DNA from: Nitrosospira lacus | Lineage (GTDB): Bacteria > Pseudomonadota > Gammaproteobacteria > Burkholderiales > Nitrosomonadaceae | Assembly (NCBI RefSeq): GCF_000355765.4 | Contig: NZ_CP021106.3 | Location: 2,327,137 to 2,391,136, forward strand | Length of the DNA stretch: 64,000 nt | Direction of reading: 5' to 3' | Part shown: positions 24,975 through 64,000 of the stretch, one piece after another | Layout of the letters: each line of letters opens with the position of its first letter | Numbering within the stretch: the first letter of the stretch is position 1 | Program-made: the position numbers and the translations under genes | Notes under the pieces: model-generated | The model's database searches: none | Told to the model about the DNA's origin: nothing | Seen by the model: the letters and a program-made list of their open reading frames with translations, nothing else

Positions 24975-26168
24975 ATGAAAACACTTCCCATCGCCTTCCT
25001 CCTATCCATCGTGATGAGCGCGGCGACACCTGCTCATGCGCAAGAGTCGAAGTGGCGGACGATAAGCGAGGAGGCGATATCACTTTACGAGAAGGGCCAG
25101 TACGACCGCGCGGTGGCGGCTGTCAAGAAGTCGCTCGCCGTGGCGGAAAAAGCGGTTGGGCCTCACCACCCCAATACAGCGACCAGCCTGAACAACCTCG
25201 CGGAGCTCTACCGCGACCATGGCCAATATGCGCTGGCGGAGCCACTCTACAAGCGAGCCGTGGCAATCCGGGAAAAATACTTTGGCCCCAACCATTCCCT
25301 GGTGGCGACAAGCCTGAACGGCCATGCGGAGCTCTACCGTGCCCAGAATCGATACGCTGAGGCCGAGCTGCTCTACAAGCGCGCGCTGGCAATCCGGGAG
25401 AAAACCCTCCGCCCCAACCATCCCGATGTGGCCCAAACGCTGAATAATCTTGCGGAACTCTATTGCACCCAGGGTCAGTATGCATCGGCCCAACCCCTTT
25501 ATGAACGTTCACTGATGATCCGGGAGAAAGTGCTCGGTGGCGATCATCCCAGCATGGCAACAGGACTGAACAATCTGGCGCTGATCTATCATACTCAAGG
25601 CCAGTATGCGCAAGCCGAGCCGTTTTACAAACGTGCCCTGGGAATTTACGAGAAAACCCTCGGCCTCGATCATCCCAATGTGGGAACGAGCCTGAGCAAT
25701 CTTGCGGCGATCTATCATAACCAGGGTCAATACGCACAAGCCGAGCCGCTCTACCAGCGCGCACTGACGATACGGGAGAAAACACTCGGCCTCGATCATC
25801 CCGATGTGGCGAGGGACTTGAGCAGCCTTGCGGAGCTCTATCGTATCCAGGGTTTGTATGCGCAAGCCGAGCCATTCTATGGGCGTTCGCTGGCGATCTT
25901 CGAGAAAACACCGGGTGTCTACCGTCTTGACATGGCAACAAGCCTGAACAACCTCGCGTTGATCTATCACACCCAGGGCCGGTATGCGCAGGCCGAGCCG
26001 TTCTACCAGCGTGCGCTGGGAATTTTCGAGAGCACCCTGGGCCCCGACCACCCCAACGTGGAGAAAAGCCTGGATAACCTTGCAAAACTCTACCGCGCAA
26101 CAGACCAGACCGGTGCAGCTGAGAAACTGGGTGTGCGGCTGGCGAGCTTTCGGGCCGCTCCGCGATAA
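24975..26168 (+). CDS. Secreted tetratricopeptide (kinesin-light-chain type) repeat protein, 397 aa
   Basis: Signal peptide MKTLPIAFLLSIVMSAATPA, cleaved after AHA, then about eight TPR units in a 42-residue period of the TPR_10/TPR_12 type (NNLAELYRDHGQYALAEPLY, KRALAIREKTLG.DHPDV). At DNA level the units repeat every 126 bases with moderate divergence, so copy number can change by recombination. AAGGAA precedes the ATG. It is a periplasmic protein-protein scaffold; the partner is unknown. The last unit is followed by GAAEKLGVRLASFRAAPR. Confidence 0.88.
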   Translation: MKTLPIAFLLSIVMSAATPAHAQESKWRTISEEAISLYEKGQYDRAVAAVKKSLAVAEKAVGPHHPNTATSLNNLAELYRDHGQYALAEPLYKRAVAIREKYFGPNHSLVATSLNGHAELYRAQNRYAEAELLYKRALAIREKTLRPNHPDVAQTLNNLAELYCTQGQYASAQPLYERSLMIREKVLGGDHPSMATGLNNLALIYHTQGQYAQAEPFYKRALGIYEKTLGLDHPNVGTSLSNLAAIYHNQGQYAQAEPLYQRALTIREKTLGLDHPDVARDLSSLAELYRIQGLYAQAEPFYGRSLAIFEKTPGVYRLDMATSLNNLALIYHTQGRYAQAEPFYQRALGIFESTLGPDHPNVEKSLDNLAKLYRATDQTGAAEKLGVRLASFRAAPR

Positions 26169-54032: not shown

Positions 54033-54356
54033 CAGGCATCCTCCGTAGAACCGTGAACCGACCGGCTGGAAAGGCTCATGGAAAAACTCATCTAATATGA
54101 TAATTGGAAATCATATGATAGCTGTTGTGAGCCTTATATCCTATTGCAAAACCCATAAAAAAACTCAGACTCTGAACAACCGTAAGATCCCTGAATAAAC
54201 GGCCATTTTTTCATGAGCAGCCGCCAAAGTGGGTAACCGCACAGAACCAGACAAGTTTATTCACTAGTATAGTGCGGCTCAAGAATGATGAGCTCATTCG
54301 CGAAGAATGAAGTCGTTACTTTACTCTTTTTTCGTTTTTTCCAATCGGAGGTAATC

Positions 54357-54779
54357 GTGAAGCTTTATTCGACGTTAAATATAACGGCGCAACTTGTCGC
54401 ACTGATTGCTTTAATCTTCGGTTTAAGCGGAGGTGTGCATGCCCAGGCCAGCATGTCTGGCGGGGACGTCCCGGCCTCGCAATCAAAGTCAGCCAAAGTC
54501 CCAAAACAACCTTGCGCGGGACCTAGTGCAATAACCTGTCCTGGCGGCATGAAGTGTATTGATGATCCATCCGACAAGTGCGACCCCACCAAGGATGGCA
54601 TCAATTGCATGGGCATCTGTGTGGCTGGCGCACCCGCAAGTAAGGTAAAACAGCCCTGTGGCGGACCTAGTGGAATTGTGTGCCCTGGTGGAATGATCTG
54701 CGTGGATGATACCACGGACACCTGCGACCCCACTAAAGACGGGGTCAATTGCATTGGTCTCTGTATAAACCGCCAATAA
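54357..54779 (+). CDS. Secreted cysteine-rich protein with two tandem domains, 140 aa
   Basis: The GTG at 54357 has a perfect GGAGGT site and opens a signal peptide ending GGVHAQ; the frame is open to 54285 but that lacks a start signal. After a Ser/Lys linker come two domains of about 45 residues: KQPCAGPSAITCPGGMKCID and KQPCGGPSGIVCPGGMICVD, each with six cysteines and a CDPTKDG turn, closing in ICV and LCI. The spacing is that of small disulfide-bonded modules; an inhibitor-like or ion-binding fold is possible but unproven. Duplication within the gene is recent enough to see at DNA level. Confidence 0.78.
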   Translation: MKLYSTLNITAQLVALIALIFGLSGGVHAQASMSGGDVPASQSKSAKVPKQPCAGPSAITCPGGMKCIDDPSDKCDPTKDGINCMGICVAGAPASKVKQPCGGPSGIVCPGGMICVDDTTDTCDPTKDGVNCIGLCINRQ

Positions 54780-59376: not shown

Positions 59377-59451
59377 GGGCGGTTAACTCAGCGGTAGAGT
59401 GCCACCTTCACACGGTGGAAGCCACTGGTTCGATCCCAGTACCGCCCACCA
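59377..59451 (+). tRNA. tRNA-Val (anticodon CAC)
   Basis: Acceptor stem GGGCGGT/ACCGCCC, anticodon stem CCACC/GGTGG with loop TTCACAC, T loop GGTTCGATCC and encoded CCA. It marks the border to the accessory block on its 3' side. Confidence 0.95.
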
Positions 59452-59729: not shown

Positions 59730-61394
59730 CTAGAACTGAGGCACTCGCCTGACGATCCCCATTTTCATCAACCACAGAATGTGCCTGTTGGCTTGATCTT
59801 GAGAAACGTGGAATTTCGCACTTAAGCTGGCAGCCATCATGCCTAGCGAACTGGATGTGCGACTGAGTTGCATCAAGGCTGCGTGCAGTAATGGTATTAA
59901 CAGTACCCCGAGTGCGCTGTGGTATGCAGGCAGTTGCGCTTCGCCATGGCAAACCTGGACGCCTAATTCACTCAGCGCAATCTTGGTATGCTGATCCAGA
60001 TTTTCTGTTGGGTAGTGAGAAAATACCTGGGAAATCAACATCAGGTTGTAGTCTTTCTTTGGTTTGGCTTGCCAGGCCGTGTTGTTGGCGATGTCCGCAA
60101 GCTCGTCCCATAAGGCTTCATGTTGTCTGACCACGACTTGCCAGTCGTAATTGGCGACTGCCTGCGCCCGCGAAGCTGCGCCCAGGCATCGGCGTAAATC
60201 GGTAGAATCAATCAGTGACTGCAGACGAAATTGCAGCGCGTCCGGGTCGACCACCACGCGTTGCCCGCTCAAGAGATGATCATACATATCGTAAGCATCG
60301 TAGATGCCAGCGGAGCGGCTGATATCCTCGTCGCAGGAGGCACTCCAGGTTGGCACGCGAAAACCCGTGACGTCATGCACCACCGTATCGCGATAGCCGT
60401 TCCAGTCGGAGACCACTTGCGGCACACCACAGGACATGGCTTCTATTGGCGTAATCCCAAAGGTCTCCTGGATGCTATCTATCGGCGAAACAAAAATATC
60501 GGCAGCAGCGTGATACAACTGGCGTGTATGCGCAGGAATGGGGCACAGCAAGACCCGCTCCGCCACCCCCAGTTCTGTCGCATACGCCTTCAGCGTCTGG
60601 CTGACAAATTTGTGGCCTGAGCCACCAATGACAAGGTAGAGCGGCTGCCTGTCAATACCACGCTGCAAACGGGAAAACACTTGTACCAAGGGCAGCAGAT
60701 CGGCTTTATCCAGCGGCGACAAGCGTCCAACCCACAGAATAATCACGGCATCCACTGGTAAATTGAGTTGTTCGCGCAAGGCCGTTTTTGGTCTGGGTTT
60801 AAATATCTTGCTATCCACCCCCAAGGGAATAGTTGCCAGGCGCGGCACGAATCTCAGCTTGAGTCCATGCGAACGCGACAAGTCTTCAGCAACACTGGTA
60901 ATCAGATTGGAAAAAACCTGCTTTGCGGACGCGGTCGGGCAGATCATCGCATCGCAAGTTTCGCCACCCTGCAATAGCATCCTGAGTATCCAATTGTGAT
61001 TCAGACCGGCATAACTAAATACATGTGGTGTCGCGGTAATCGGGTATAGGCGCGTGGAATAACGCTGGCGCAGATCATTGGCACTTTGCAGATTTCCATC
61101 CAGATCATGCCAGACAGAAAATGGGTGCGCAGCAAAATGATCGCGCAGTGCACGCATTTCACTCAAAATCGGATGCACATCCGGCGCGGCCAGCTGTTCA
61201 AAGCGCCGCAGGCTACCGGTGCGTCTTTGCAAGACCGGGCTGTTTTGAAAAAAGTGTAAATCTCCGGGTCTGGAATACCGCAATAGCGCATCACAAAAAC
61301 CTTCGACTGCTATATCGCGTCCAAACACACCATCGGCATCTGGTTCCGGATCGCTGATATCCAAGTATAAACCTACCCGCGCCATGCCATTCAT
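59730..61394 (-). CDS. GT4-family glycosyltransferase with C-terminal winged-helix (RRE-like) tail, 554 aa
   Basis: The first 440 residues are a GT-B glycosyltransferase of family 4: an N-terminal domain with HDLDGNLQSANDLR, then IPLGVDSKIFKP, ILWVGRLSPLDKADLLPLV, LYLVIGGSGHKF and the ExxxxxxxE donor site in ETFGITPIEAMSCGVPQVVSDWNG. The last 60 residues differ from ordinary GT4 proteins: LLIPLLHAALMQLSRTSSSL then GMMAASLSAKFHVSQDQANR and HILWLMKMGIVRR, read as a small winged helix of the type found in PqqD/RiPP-recognition domains. Its ATG overlaps the stop of the asparagine-synthetase-like gene (ATGA). It may glycosylate the repeat peptide; the donor sugar is unknown. Confidence 0.82.
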   Translation of the reverse strand: MNGMARVGLYLDISDPEPDADGVFGRDIAVEGFCDALLRYSRPGDLHFFQNSPVLQRRTGSLRRFEQLAAPDVHPILSEMRALRDHFAAHPFSVWHDLDGNLQSANDLRQRYSTRLYPITATPHVFSYAGLNHNWILRMLLQGGETCDAMICPTASAKQVFSNLITSVAEDLSRSHGLKLRFVPRLATIPLGVDSKIFKPRPKTALREQLNLPVDAVIILWVGRLSPLDKADLLPLVQVFSRLQRGIDRQPLYLVIGGSGHKFVSQTLKAYATELGVAERVLLCPIPAHTRQLYHAAADIFVSPIDSIQETFGITPIEAMSCGVPQVVSDWNGYRDTVVHDVTGFRVPTWSASCDEDISRSAGIYDAYDMYDHLLSGQRVVVDPDALQFRLQSLIDSTDLRRCLGAASRAQAVANYDWQVVVRQHEALWDELADIANNTAWQAKPKKDYNLMLISQVFSHYPTENLDQHTKIALSELGVQVCHGEAQLPAYHSALGVLLIPLLHAALMQLSRTSSSLGMMAASLSAKFHVSQDQANRHILWLMKMGIVRRVPQF

Positions 61395-62959
61395 GCTCGT
61401 GCCCCGATGCTGCGCAAGCTCATTTCCAGGCTGGCGGCGCTGTAAAACGGCAGTGCCTCGTCGTCCGTGCCATTCTCACACCAGTCAAGGAAGCGATTTC
61501 TAAGCTGGCGCGGATCGACCAGATCCAGTTCCGCCAATAGCGGTTGATCAAACAGTTCGCACAATTGCTGCCCCGCGCTGTGCCGCAAGCCGGATGACAA
61601 GGAACTCTGAAAGCTATCGACGGTGCGACTTTCCACCACTTCCGACGGGCAATCAAGTTGGCGCAACATGGCTCTTTCTATCGTGCGACCCACCCGCCAT
61701 GACCATGGCAGCGCGCCACAAAAGCGATTCAGTTCAGGCGTGCACAAGGGATGGATGGGCCAGATGCCGTGGCGCAGATAAATCGCCGAGCCAAAAGCGG
61801 CTGACTCCAGCGAAGATGCGTCGATCATGGCCCGTGGTGCAGCATCGGACAGCGTCGATCGCATAGCCCGCATGGCGCGTCGCGTCAGAAAATCCGGCGC
61901 GCTAGGCGTGGCAGAGGCAGGTTCCAGCACCGCCAATTCGGGCGGTGCCGGGTCTTCAAAGGCATAAAGCGGGCATAGCTCATCACCACCAAACCCGGTA
62001 AACATGGCTTGCACACCTTGCCTGGCGGCCGTGGCCAGCATTGCGTTGACGCCTTCATCATAGATTTCCCCCCAGGGAACCATCGTCGCTGCATGCCAAC
62101 GCGGAGAATCTGCGGCCAATGGCAGATGCGCGTTCAGGTCAACGCTGGCGTCATGAAAGCCGAAGCGCTCGATCAGTGACTGGCGGCGCTGCTGCTGCCC
62201 TGGTGCGTCCAGATGAATGCCAAAGGTCGATAAACCTGGCTGGTACTGGCGGCAAAGAATGGACACCAGGCTTGAATCCAGCCCACCGCTAAGTTCCGAC
62301 CCATATTGTATATCGGCATGTATCCAGCGTTTCACCGCCCCCTCCAATATCTTGAGCGCCGCCTCGGCAGGTCTGGCATCTGCACACAAGGTTCTCACAC
62401 CGGCCACGGATGCTGGATTGGGGTAGCTGATTCTGAGCCCGGTGTTGCCATTCCACAGCGCACAACTGAGCGCAGTGAGCATCTGCAATTCAAAAAATAA
62501 GGTACGGCGCGAATAAGGCATATCGAAGGAATGCAAGAAACGCGATGCTCGCCCCAGATCAAGGCAGTCTAGATAGGGATAAAATTCCAGCGGATCCCAG
62601 TGTCCACGCAGGGTATGCGCTGACTCCATCAGATAGATCGGTGCGGTGCCCCATGCACCTTGTCGTAACGACATCGCGCCTGCCTGATGATCGATGACCA
62701 GAATGGTGGTTTGTAAAGGCCATGCACGCGCGGCAAGCACCGCCCTGTAAAAATTCGCAGCATCAAGGACTTGGTTGGCCGGTGCTTCTGCACCGCGCTC
62801 ACGAACGATCATTGCACTAGCCTGGGGACAGCGCAAAGTGTAAGACTCCAGCATGGGATGTTGCAGAGAACGGATCCAGCTTTGCCCGCAACGCATTTCA
62901 GTTGCAGACATGCGCCATGGTCGTTTCAGGGAAGACGCCTTGATTTCCAAACTCAGCAT
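61391..62959 (-). CDS. Asparagine-synthetase-like ATP-dependent enzyme, 522 aa
   Basis: The C-terminal half is an asparagine-synthetase-type ATP pyrophosphatase domain: the PP-loop SGGLDSS at 224-230, then FGIHLDAPGQQQ, and GFGGDELCPLY. The N-terminal half resembles the amidotransferase-like domain of such proteins (ILVIDHQAGAMSLRQGAWGTAPIY) but lacks a starting catalytic cysteine, as in lasso-peptide cyclases and other enzymes that adenylate a carboxylate and join it to an amine. The start at 62959 has a GAGGT site; the frame is open to 63088 with no ribosome site. It is translationally coupled to the glycosyltransferase and downstream of the repeat protein, so a side-chain amide or macrolactam on that peptide is the favoured inference. 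Confidence 0.8.
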   Translation of the reverse strand: MLSLEIKASSLKRPWRMSATEMRCGQSWIRSLQHPMLESYTLRCPQASAMIVRERGAEAPANQVLDAANFYRAVLAARAWPLQTTILVIDHQAGAMSLRQGAWGTAPIYLMESAHTLRGHWDPLEFYPYLDCLDLGRASRFLHSFDMPYSRRTLFFELQMLTALSCALWNGNTGLRISYPNPASVAGVRTLCADARPAEAALKILEGAVKRWIHADIQYGSELSGGLDSSLVSILCRQYQPGLSTFGIHLDAPGQQQRRQSLIERFGFHDASVDLNAHLPLAADSPRWHAATMVPWGEIYDEGVNAMLATAARQGVQAMFTGFGGDELCPLYAFEDPAPPELAVLEPASATPSAPDFLTRRAMRAMRSTLSDAAPRAMIDASSLESAAFGSAIYLRHGIWPIHPLCTPELNRFCGALPWSWRVGRTIERAMLRQLDCPSEVVESRTVDSFQSSLSSGLRHSAGQQLCELFDQPLLAELDLVDPRQLRNRFLDWCENGTDDEALPFYSAASLEMSLRSIGARA

Positions 62960-63108
62960 ACCGACCTCATGAAGGATTTTTTTCTGGCGAGCTTCAATCG
63001 CCGCCAGATGAAAATTTGAGCGTGCTGGTGGAATGATGCGGGCCAAGTGCATTGCCATTTGCATTTGTATTCTTGCCTGCCGCAGCATCCACGGCTAAAA
63101 CCATCGTG

Positions 63109-63139
63109 CCCGCCTGGGAGCAGTCTGTCACCAGGCGGG
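63109..63139 (-). promoter_or_regulatory. Hairpin between repeat protein and asparagine-synthetase-like gene
   Basis: CCCGCCTGG (63109-63117) and CCAGGCGGG (63131-63139) form a perfect 9-bp stem with a 13-base loop. No T run follows on the minus strand, so it is better read as an attenuator or RNA-processing/stability element than as a full terminator. Confidence 0.6.
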
Positions 63140-63175
63140 TCTAAACGATATGACTACACTACAAGTACAGGGCAC

Positions 63176-64000
63176 TCATTTCTTTTTCTTCGCTTGCCGG
63201 TCGCGTGCACCGCCGATTTTTGCCAGATAGTCTTGCCCGACAAGTTCCATCAGTTCATGAATCAAGGCAGTCAGCAAGGAAGGTCCGCCATCATCCTCAT
63301 TAACCAGACTGCGCTTTTTACGACGTTGGCGATCGCGCGCACCACTGATCTTCGCCAGCAATTCGGCTTCCGCAACATCGCTCAGACGCATTTTCTTGCG
63401 ACGCTGGCGATCACGCGCACCGGATATTTTTGCATTCGGCTCCAGCGCTTCATCTTCCTCGTCGCCCTCTTCAAACTGATCTGAACCATCAGCGATGTAG
63501 AGATTCTCTTCATCAGCCAGACTGCGTTTTTTACGACGCTGGCGATCGCGCGCACCGCTGATCTTCGCCAGCAATTCAGCTTCCGCAACATCACTCAGGC
63601 GCATCTTCTTGCGACGCTGGCGATCGCGCGCACCGGATATTTTTGCATTCGGCTCCAGCGCTTCATCTTCCTCATCGCCCTCTTCAAACTGATCTGAACC
63701 ATCAGCGATGTCGAAATCGTCTTCATCAGCCAGACTGCGTTTTTTACGTCGTTGGCGATCGCGCGCACCGCTGATCTTCGCCAGCAATTCGGCTTCCTCA
63801 ACATCGCTCAGACGCATTTTCTTGCGACGCTGGCGATCACGCGCACCGGATATTTTTGCACTTGGCTCCGGCGCTTCATCTTCCTCATCACGCTCTTCAA
63901 ACTGATCTGAACCATCAGCAATGTCAAGATTCTCTTCATCAGCCAGACTGCGTTTTTTACGGCGCTGGCGATCGCGCGCACCACTGATCTTCGCCAGCAA
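63176..64000 (-). CDS. Repeat protein with at least eight basic AKISGARDRQ segments: candidate multi-core peptide precursor (5' partial)
   Basis: The frame enters from beyond the window, so the N-terminus (a possible leader) is not visible. The 274 residues seen hold eight copies of AKISGARDRQRRKK (last copy AKIGGARDRQAKKKK at the C-terminus). They alternate with two linkers: a 31-residue acidic one (RSLADEEN...SDQFEEGDEEDEALEPN) and a 12-residue one (MRLSDVAEAELL). The basic and acidic parts nearly balance. The last linker differs and holds a hydrophobic LLTALIHELMELVGQDYL. No known domain. RRKK dibasic ends look like processing sites. Context with an asparagine-synthetase-like enzyme and an RRE-tailed glycosyltransferase suggests a modified-peptide precursor; a nucleic-acid-binding repeat protein is the alternative. 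Confidence 0.7.
   Translation of the reverse strand: MLAKISGARDRQRRKKRSLADEENLDIADGSDQFEERDEEDEAPEPSAKISGARDRQRRKKMRLSDVEEAELLAKISGARDRQRRKKRSLADEDDFDIADGSDQFEEGDEEDEALEPNAKISGARDRQRRKKMRLSDVAEAELLAKISGARDRQRRKKRSLADEENLYIADGSDQFEEGDEEDEALEPNAKISGARDRQRRKKMRLSDVAEAELLAKISGARDRQRRKKRSLVNEDDGGPSLLTALIHELMELVGQDYLAKIGGARDRQAKKKK
63311..64000 (-). repeat. Exact-length 213-bp tandem super-repeat inside the repeat protein
   Basis: The GCG[CT]TTTTTACG block recurs at 63311, 63524, 63737 and 63950, always 213 bases (71 codons) apart. Copies are nearly identical; differences fall mainly in the acidic linker (EENLD, DDFD, EENLY). The array continues past the window end, so true copy number is unknown. 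Confidence 0.9.

What the first reader, a model, noticed from the sequence alone, without database searches (positions are those of the whole stretch)
59730..64000. Candidate new RiPP-type cluster: multi-core repeat peptide, asparagine-synthetase-like enzyme, RRE-tailed glycosyltransferase
Seen: three co-directional minus-strand genes. The first encodes at least eight copies of AKISGARDRQRRKK; the second is an asparagine-synthetase-type ligase without the amidotransferase cysteine; the third is a GT4 enzyme whose last 60 residues look like a PqqD-type winged helix, and it overlaps the second by ATGA. Known: asparagine-synthetase homologues close lasso macrolactams, and RRE domains deliver precursors to RiPP enzymes. 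Inference: the ligase modifies each repeat and the glycosyltransferase decorates it. I know no described class with this enzyme pair and a multi-core, dibasic-spaced precursor.
Basis: partly seen in the sequence, partly recalled or inferred. Interest (0 to 1): 0.9.

Follow-up and report, generated by a model that had tools for sequence, protein, structure and literature searches.

The report
Peptide ring-forming enzyme and repeat substrate
A bacterial gene pair (a lasso-cyclase-like ligase and a sugar transferase) sits beside a large protein that carries nine copies of a short motif with a lysine and an aspartate always six residues apart; related loci show the same spacing in small peptides, pointing to a possibly undescribed family of enzymes that staple lysine to aspartate inside peptides.

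Summary
The "repeat peptide" is the C-terminus of a 783-aa protein (Hint-like region, HExxH stretch, then nine cores; seven exact AKISGARDRQRRKK). The ligase is asparagine-synthetase (AS)-type without the amidotransferase Cys; it overlaps the GT4 gene by ATGA, as in two other genomes. Independent support for a RiPP reading is strong. An Acidobacteriota locus has a complete precursor-AS-GT4 cassette with a 48-aa precursor ending AKAAGARDAQKKKKT; another has a four-core precursor (KGTAGxDxQ) directly before its AS. Across 64 AS loci, small upstream ORFs show Lys-x5-Asp in 51, against 5-22 for other spacings; after clustering 17 of 19 against 4.3 expected, the strongest of all residue pairs at spacings 1-14, with no Glu or Arg equivalent. 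A lasso B2 profile finds nothing convincing beside any of the 64. Best reading: AS-type ligases that form Lys-Asp side-chain lactams (seven-residue rings); here the core was multiplied on a carrier related to proteins of toxin-complex and contractile-injection-type loci. The bond, the sugar, the RRE nature of the GT tail and the product's role are unproven. Nine literature searches listed no such class; most subscription papers are not held.

The parts
63176..64000 (-). C-terminal part of a 783-aa carrier protein (gene runs on to 65527 in window coordinates = L002 4313-6664): Hint-like region, HExxH stretch, then 9 cores
   Evidence: ORF; PT-HINT E 5.8e-4, AXH E 6.3e-4 over the same region, Peptidase_M78 E 0.061, all below the curated cut-offs; alignment with 6 homologues
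63182..63223 (-). core 9 (variant AKIGGARDRQAKKK(K), at the very C-terminus; by eye the copy most like the single-core precursor of L100)
63314..63355 (-). core 8, AKISGARDRQRRKK
63392..63433 (-). core 7, AKISGARDRQRRKK
63527..63568 (-). core 6, AKISGARDRQRRKK
63605..63646 (-). core 5, AKISGARDRQRRKK
63740..63781 (-). core 4, AKISGARDRQRRKK
63818..63859 (-). core 3, AKISGARDRQRRKK
63953..63994 (-). core 2, AKISGARDRQRRKK (core 1, AKSAGARDRQRRKK, lies just outside at 64031-64072)
63109..63139 (-). hairpin CCCGCCTGG...CCAGGCGGG between the carrier gene and the AS gene; possible attenuator or terminator
   Evidence: seen by eye, placed; the scan of the region finds 5 terminator-like sites against 4.0 expected, so weak
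62994..63104 (-). 36-aa ORF ending ...STLKFSSGGD (Lys-x5-Asp) in the place where relatives have their precursor; tentative second precursor or chance
   Evidence: no clear Shine-Dalgarno by eye, so low confidence
61391..62959 (-). AS-type ligase (PF00733), no N-terminal Cys; proposed Lys-Asp lactam-forming enzyme
59730..61394 (-). GT4 glycosyltransferase with about 110-aa C-terminal tail (about 59733-60050); ATGA overlap with the AS gene
   Evidence: tail model
59377..59451 (+). tRNA-Val bordering the block on its left (possible integration border, not tested)

Best explanation
The AS-type ligase is a peptide cyclase. It adenylates the Asp side chain of the motif K-x5-D with ATP at its PP-loop (SGGLDS) domain. 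The epsilon-amine of the Lys six residues earlier then attacks, giving a Lys-Asp isopeptide and a seven-residue side-chain ring (-18 Da per core). In most relatives the substrate is a small precursor encoded just upstream. In this genome the core has been multiplied to nine copies at the C-terminus of a 783-aa Hint/metallopeptidase-like carrier, and each copy is the substrate. The GT4, whose gene is coupled to the AS gene, then adds a sugar to the modified cores or to the carrier. Shown: gene order, conserved core, conserved AS-GT4 overlap, Lys-x5-Asp spacing across most of the family, absence of the Ntn Cys, a fold closest to beta-lactam and carbapenam synthetases, no lasso-type peptidase found beside the genes. 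Inferred: the bond, its order, the sugar, export and biological role.
For: (1) L100: complete precursor (MDVIK...MAKAAGARDAQKKKKT, with AAAAGGAG upstream of its ATG) - AS (36% id) - GT4 (41% over 542 aa). (2) L017: AS relative (37%) directly preceded by a precursor with four KGTAGxDxQ cores. (3) L018: AS-GT4 pair, GT4 40.5% over 553 aa, same ATGA overlap. (4) Lys-x5-Asp in small upstream ORFs of 51 of 64 AS loci, other spacings 5-22; 17 of 19 AS clusters against 4.3 expected, z 7.3, top of all residue pairs at spacings 1-14; Lys-Glu +6 in 2 (expected 3.9) and Arg-Asp +6 in 8 (expected 7.7), so an amine and an Asp specifically. All small ORFs in the three forward frames were used there, so the test does not depend on choosing a precursor. 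(5) AS model pLDDT 92.6; best PDB folds are beta-lactam synthetase and carbapenam synthetase, enzymes that form intramolecular amides (recalled). (6) The cores are held at protein level.
Against: No product has been seen. 13 of 64 loci lack Lys-x5-Asp in the stretch tested: four of them lack upstream DNA (L018, L025, L028, L035), three (L038, L053, L059) have Lys-x6-Asp in a precursor-like ORF, and six (L026, L060, L062, L075, L077, L078) were not resolved. A conserved Lys could be a recognition residue. GT4 is absent near the L017 AS (no match in that genome at E 1e-30) and was found with AS in 2 relatives only (L018, L100), so glycosylation is not general. No relative with both carrier and cores was found: of 6 Hint/HExxH loci none has AS, GT4 or the core, and no AS locus of 80 has the carrier, so the fusion rests on one genome. 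Six further Lys-x5-Asp pairs lie across the core-spacer junctions (KKRSLAD, KKMRLSD), so which pairs react is open.
Confidence: 0.6

Rival explanations
1. The ligase activates the core Asp but joins it to ammonia or to another small amine (amidation, nitrile, amino sugar), and the Lys is only a recognition element.
For: Other AS-like RiPP enzymes amidate or make nitriles (PMC13060819, passages read: TsrC, ScdTA, PesC act on C-termini; PesC also accepts free ammonia).
Against: No Cys after the Met in any of the 27 of 37 aligned rows whose start is shown (starts are inferred); the fixed Lys-Asp distance with no Arg enrichment is hard to explain by recognition alone; closest folds are lactam-forming enzymes.
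Confidence: 0.17
2. It is a lasso-peptide branch: a host protease frees an N-terminus near the Lys and a threaded lasso forms.
For: 29 of 37 members match the albusnodin/ikarugamycin cyclase model NF033561 (best E 4.3e-14) and 17 of 37 the lasso cyclase model NF033535; the spacing equals a seven-residue lasso ring (lasso ring sizes recalled).
Against: The window AS scores about 31 and 26 bits against cut-offs of 300 and 525 (scores of the other members are not shown); a lasso B2 profile finds nothing convincing in the flanks held of the 64 loci, in L002 or in L100 (one hit at E 0.25, L066), but finds it in 4 remote loci (L090, L093, L095, L096) and in all 13 stretches it was built from; 10 of 32 host genomes have no PF13471 match; the window cores before the last are internal.
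Confidence: 0.08
3. The repeats are charge-patterned linkers or binding modules of the carrier, and the AS+GT4 pair acts on something else, for example the 36-aa ORF between the genes, which also ends in Lys-x5-Asp.
For: The 36-aa ORF sits where relatives have their precursor.
Against: L100 and L017 carry the same kind of core next to the same enzyme; the 36-aa ORF lacks a clear ribosome site.
Confidence: 0.1
4. No functional link: chance proximity of a repeat protein and two enzymes.
For: The carrier family and the enzyme pair occur apart elsewhere.
Against: Shared core motif with L100 and L017; conserved AS-GT4 overlap; purifying selection on the cores.
Confidence: 0.03

Closest known systems
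Lasso peptide cyclase (C protein) and lasso peptides
   Same: AS-type family without Ntn Cys, macrolactam chemistry on Asp, ring of seven residues (lasso features recalled)
   Different: no B2 peptidase found beside it, Lys side chain in place of the N-terminal amine (inferred), internal and multiple cores
Beta-lactam synthetase / carbapenam synthetase
   Same: closest solved folds, intramolecular amide formation by an AS relative (recalled)
   Different: small-molecule substrates (recalled); 13-16% identity in the fold matches
Graspetides (microviridin type)
   Same: side-chain lactams, multi-core precursors (general knowledge; titles and abstract starts seen)
   Different: ATP-grasp ligase, here PF00733
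Nitrilobacillin synthetase PesC, TsrC, ScdTA
   Same: AS-like enzymes on RiPP precursors (PMC13060819, passages)
   Different: they act on the C-terminal carboxylate; PesC uses glutamine or ammonia; the same paper counts about 300 uncharacterised AS-like RiPP candidates
Hint/HExxH proteins with a partner zinc-ribbon-like protein in toxin-complex-type and injection-type loci (Streptomyces canus, Burkholderia, Mycetohabitans, Paenibacillus)
   Same: most of the first 460 residues of the carrier align (365-461 residues covered); partner gene close by in both
   Different: the 6 loci lack cores, AS and GT4; in Burkholderia, Mycetohabitans and Paenibacillus the C-terminus is a different extension, and the HExxH is lost there and in one S. 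canus copy (L006)

Membership tests
Lasso peptide cluster | AS-type cyclase without the amidotransferase Cys | tested here: met
Lasso peptide cluster | B2 leader peptidase (PF13471) beside the cyclase | tested here: not met
   nothing convincing beside the 64 AS loci, L002 and L100 (one E 0.25 hit, L066); the profile finds its 13 source stretches and 4 remote loci. Flanks are up to about 9 kb and shorter at contig ends.
Lasso peptide cluster | score above the curated cyclase models | tested here: not met
   window AS: about 30 and 26 bits against cut-offs 300 and 525
Lasso peptide cluster | RRE (B1/PqqD-like) | tested here: inconclusive
   no PqqD among the 25 commonest of 209 families of 101 neighbours (only these are listed); GT tail undecided
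Lasso peptide cluster | precursor leader with its conserved Thr before the core | not tested
   not scored; the conserved feature seen is Lys-x5-Asp
Lasso peptide cluster | threaded topology | not testable with these tools
   needs the product
Graspetide | ATP-grasp ligase | tested here: not met
   the ligase is PF00733
RiPP (general) | precursor gene beside a modifying enzyme, conserved core | tested here: met
RiPP (general) | demonstrated modification of the precursor | not testable with these tools
   needs mass spectrometry
RRE-fused tailoring enzyme | PqqD-type fold in the GT tail | tested here: inconclusive
   hairpin plus three helices at pLDDT 52, two-row alignment; best PDB hit E 0.31, PqqD E 0.81; the L100 tail lacks about 16 residues of this stretch
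Hint/HExxH protein family (as found) | similarity over most of about 460 residues | tested here: met
   (25-32% identity; E 2e-21 to 9e-59)

The most novel reading that the evidence does not exclude
AS-type ligases found in Acidobacteriota, Gemmatimonadota, Pseudomonadota, Actinomycetota and Myxococcota form an undescribed RiPP class that staples Lys to Asp (K-x5-D; no precursor is visible in the one Gemmatimonadota contig). In this genome the core was grafted as nine tandem copies onto a 783-aa protein of a family found in toxin-complex-type or injection-type loci, so that a whole protein tail becomes a string of glycosylated lactam rings.
Probability: 0.45. Interest if true: 0.87.

Novelty: new variant of a known kind. 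Interest (0 to 1): 0.77.

Why it matters
AS-type enzymes in RiPP pathways are known as lasso cyclases and C-terminal amidases or nitrile synthetases (PMC13060819, passages). A lasso-cyclase relative that needs no leader peptidase and closes a side-chain ring inside an uncut polypeptide would be a new biosynthetic logic. It has a simple candidate rule (K-x5-D), dozens of ready test loci, and possible use as a protein-stapling tool. The window shows such a core transplanted and multiplied on a large protein, which makes it directly testable whether modification works on internal repeats.

Tried and rejected
Rejected: lasso peptide (no B2 found; weak models); graspetide (no ATP-grasp); ordinary asparagine synthetase (no Cys). 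The 36-aa ORF as sole precursor was set aside as too weak (no clear ribosome site; other Lys-Asp spacings occur in 5-22 of 64 loci, so one such pair in a small ORF is not rare).

Led nowhere: closer relatives of AS in the order (1 of 200 genomes, own only, E 1e-20), in the own phylum (1 of 398, own only, E 1e-40), and in the phylum of G1304 (1 of 249, itself); carrier relatives in the own class (2 of 369, own plus one partial match of 33% over about 83 aa); viral contigs (AS and Hint queries: none; GT: one partial match, L097); other copies of the repeat in the own genome (only the array itself). Pfam and NCBIfam name none of 10 precursors given (one hit at E 0.14).

Limits: the genome-contig scan used one peptide pattern and kept 80 of 91 relatives. 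Flanks are cut by contig ends at several loci; gene calls in relatives are mechanical; loci are not independent, hence the clustering (3 of 22 clusters dropped for missing upstream DNA); cluster L038 counts as a miss although other members of it, such as L040, have Lys-x5-Asp. In the neighbour scan only 101 of the 203 ORFs listed were given (others went to or were left out), and only the 25 commonest of 209 families are shown. In one search only 32 loci were given of the 80 fetched. The lasso profile is home-made from 13 PF13471 matches.
Full report
What is there. The window ends inside a gene. Its own genome (G000, one contig; the window is 2327137-2391136) lets it be completed: the repeat ORF belongs to a 783-aa protein. 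Its N-terminal part is Cys-rich and Hint-like (PT-HINT E 5.8e-4; AXH matches the same region at E 6.3e-4; both below Pfam's cut-offs), followed by a HExxH stretch (AHEVGHLLG; Peptidase_M78 only E 0.061). From residue 486 on come nine cores: AKSAGARDRQRRKK, seven exact AKISGARDRQRRKK and a terminal AKIGGARDRQAKKKK; eight lie in the window. Upstream on the same strand are a protein of about 190-215 aa with a CxxC...CxxCGC pattern (by eye; no Pfam family) and a 2103-aa protein with five Laminin_G_3 stretches. Downstream are the AS-type ligase and the GT4 enzyme.

The cores are selected as protein. The exact cores fall into two codon classes that differ by 8-11 of 42 nucleotides with no amino-acid difference; only 24% of single changes in this stretch would be silent. 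The spacers between them are acidic or mixed segments.

The enzyme pair recurs, with a precursor. A scan of genome contigs with an AS alignment gave 91 relatives, of which 80 were kept as loci. The closest, L017 (an Acidobacteriaceae MAG), has directly before its AS a small gene with four KGTAGxDxQ cores. L018 (a Gemmatimonadetes MAG) has AS plus a GT4 40.5% identical over 553 aa; its contig starts inside the AS gene, so no precursor can be seen. A search of 347 genomes of the phylum of L017's genome gave one more (2 of 347 with L017's own). That locus, L100, holds the complete set: a 48-aa precursor ending AKAAGARDAQKKKKT, an AS, and a GT4 41% identical over 542 aa including part of the tail. 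AS stop and GT start overlap as ATGA in the window, L018 and L100. The last window core (AKIGGARDRQAKKKK) resembles the C-terminus of the L100 precursor, which suggests that a single-core end was the starting point and the array grew before it (inference).

The family rule. Small ORFs before the AS genes of Rhizobium, Xanthomonas, Luteibacter, Mesorhizobium, Cupriavidus, Bradyrhizobium, Streptomyces, Lentzea, Myxococcus, Gluconacetobacter and others differ widely between groups but carry a Lys with an Asp six residues on. Counted without choosing precursors (all small ORFs in the three forward frames upstream), 51 of 64 loci have it, against 5-22 for other spacings and 4-18 for the reverse order. 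With one locus per AS cluster at 50% identity (22 clusters, 19 with enough upstream DNA), 17 of 19 have it against 4.3 in shuffles (z 7.3), the highest of all residue pairs at spacings 1-14; Lys-Glu at +6 (2, expected 3.9) and Arg-Asp at +6 (8, expected 7.7) are not enriched. Of the 13 misses four lack upstream DNA, three (L038, L053, L059) have Lys-x6-Asp in a precursor-like ORF, and six were not resolved. The nine window cores, the four L017 cores and the L100 core all obey Lys-x5-Asp.

What the ligase is. It matches PF00733. In the 27 of 37 aligned rows whose start is shown, the Met is followed by Leu (19), Ile (4), Phe (3) or Asp (1), never Cys, so glutamine hydrolysis is not expected. A model from 37 sequences has pLDDT 92.6. 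The best PDB folds are beta-lactam synthetase and carbapenam synthetase, then TsnB9 and asparagine synthetases; by sequence the best is again beta-lactam synthetase (E 3e-7). NCBIfam's albusnodin-type and lasso cyclase models match 29 and 17 of 37 members; the window AS lies far below both cut-offs.

It is not a lasso cluster by the tests made. A profile built from 13 PF13471 matches finds its source stretches and four remote loci (L090, L093, L095, L096), but nothing convincing beside the 64 AS loci, the window block or L100 (one hit at E 0.25, L066). Of 32 host genomes searched 10 have no PF13471 match. Neighbours of the AS genes vary: GNAT, APH-type kinase, methyltransferase, acyltransferase, ABC transporter, autoinducer synthase, and also plainly unrelated genes, which would fit optional tailoring and transport.

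The glycosyltransferase tail. The tail is conserved in outline in three GT4 proteins. A two-row model shows a hairpin and three helices, but pLDDT is 52. The PDB matches are mostly small DNA-binding domains (winged helices among them) and, at rank 3, a PqqD, none significant. The RRE idea stays open.

The carrier. Most of its first 460 residues match proteins on plasmids of Streptomyces canus (two), Burkholderia stagnalis and pyrrocinia, Paenibacillus cellulosilyticus and Mycetohabitans rhizoxinica (6 records). A homologue of the CxxC/CGC protein lies close by in all six; two further records (Sinorhizobium meliloti, Azospirillum oryzae) match this protein only. In Burkholderia pyrrocinia and Mycetohabitans the pair lies between a neuraminidase-like-domain gene and an SpvB/TcaC gene, in one S. 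canus plasmid beside a baseplate J gene, a LamG gene and an AHH-domain gene. None of the six loci has AS, GT4 or the core; the 2103-aa LamG protein matches only 90 residues in one of them (E 3e-5). None of the 80 AS loci has the carrier, its partner or the LamG protein at E 1e-3. The window thus joins two modules found apart. This rests on one genome.

Mechanism and status. The likely reaction is adenylation of the core Asp and attack by the core Lys, giving a side-chain lactam. It follows from the fixed spacing, the residue specificity, the missing Cys and the lactam-forming fold relatives, but no product has been seen. The GT4 probably decorates the same substrate because the genes are coupled, but L017 does without it. 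Whether the HExxH domain trims at the basic ends of the cores is speculation.

Literature. Nine full-text searches on AS-type RiPP enzymes and one on the carrier context listed no side-chain Lys-Asp class made by an AS-type enzyme; apart from PMC13060819 only listings with titles and abstract starts were seen. Passages of PMC13060819 say that of about 3,800 AS-family candidates near RiPP elements about 3,500 are lasso-related, TsrC and ScdTA amidate C-termini, and about 300 are uncharacterised. The library lacks most subscription papers, so an existing description cannot be excluded.

Noticed in passing
L030 7787-8365 and 8688-8846 (also 6 other Rhizobium loci): In rhizobia the AS gene and its single-core precursor follow a LuxI-type autoinducer synthase (PF00765, E 9e-20 for L030; homologues in 6 more loci), suggesting a quorum-controlled peptide.
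   Followed up: partly
L005-L010: A conserved pair (Hint/HExxH protein plus CxxC/CGC protein) sits in toxin-complex-type and injection-type loci; the HExxH is degenerate in the Burkholderia, Mycetohabitans and Paenibacillus copies and in one S. canus copy, and S. canus NBC_01002 has two near-identical copies in opposite orientation.
   Followed up: partly
window 62994-63104: 36-aa ORF ending KFSSGGD between the carrier and AS genes, in the position of the family's precursor but without a clear ribosome site.
   Followed up: partly
AS loci L019, L022, L024, L029, L048, L061, L079, L027, L051, L058: Optional neighbours of the AS genes: GNAT, APH-type kinase, methyltransferase, acyltransferase; possible tailoring enzymes of the same peptides.
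   Followed up: partly
window 25179-26083: 126-bp tandem repeats (42 aa per unit), tetratricopeptide-like by eye; domain not checked.
   Followed up: no
window 54285-54779 (+): 164-aa ORF with two Cys-rich repeats (PC.GPS.I.CPGGM.C.DD...CDPTKDG.NC.G.C); not examined.
   Followed up: no
L038, L053, L059: Precursor-like ORFs with Lys-x6-Asp instead of Lys-x5-Asp, a possible larger-ring subgroup.
   Followed up: no
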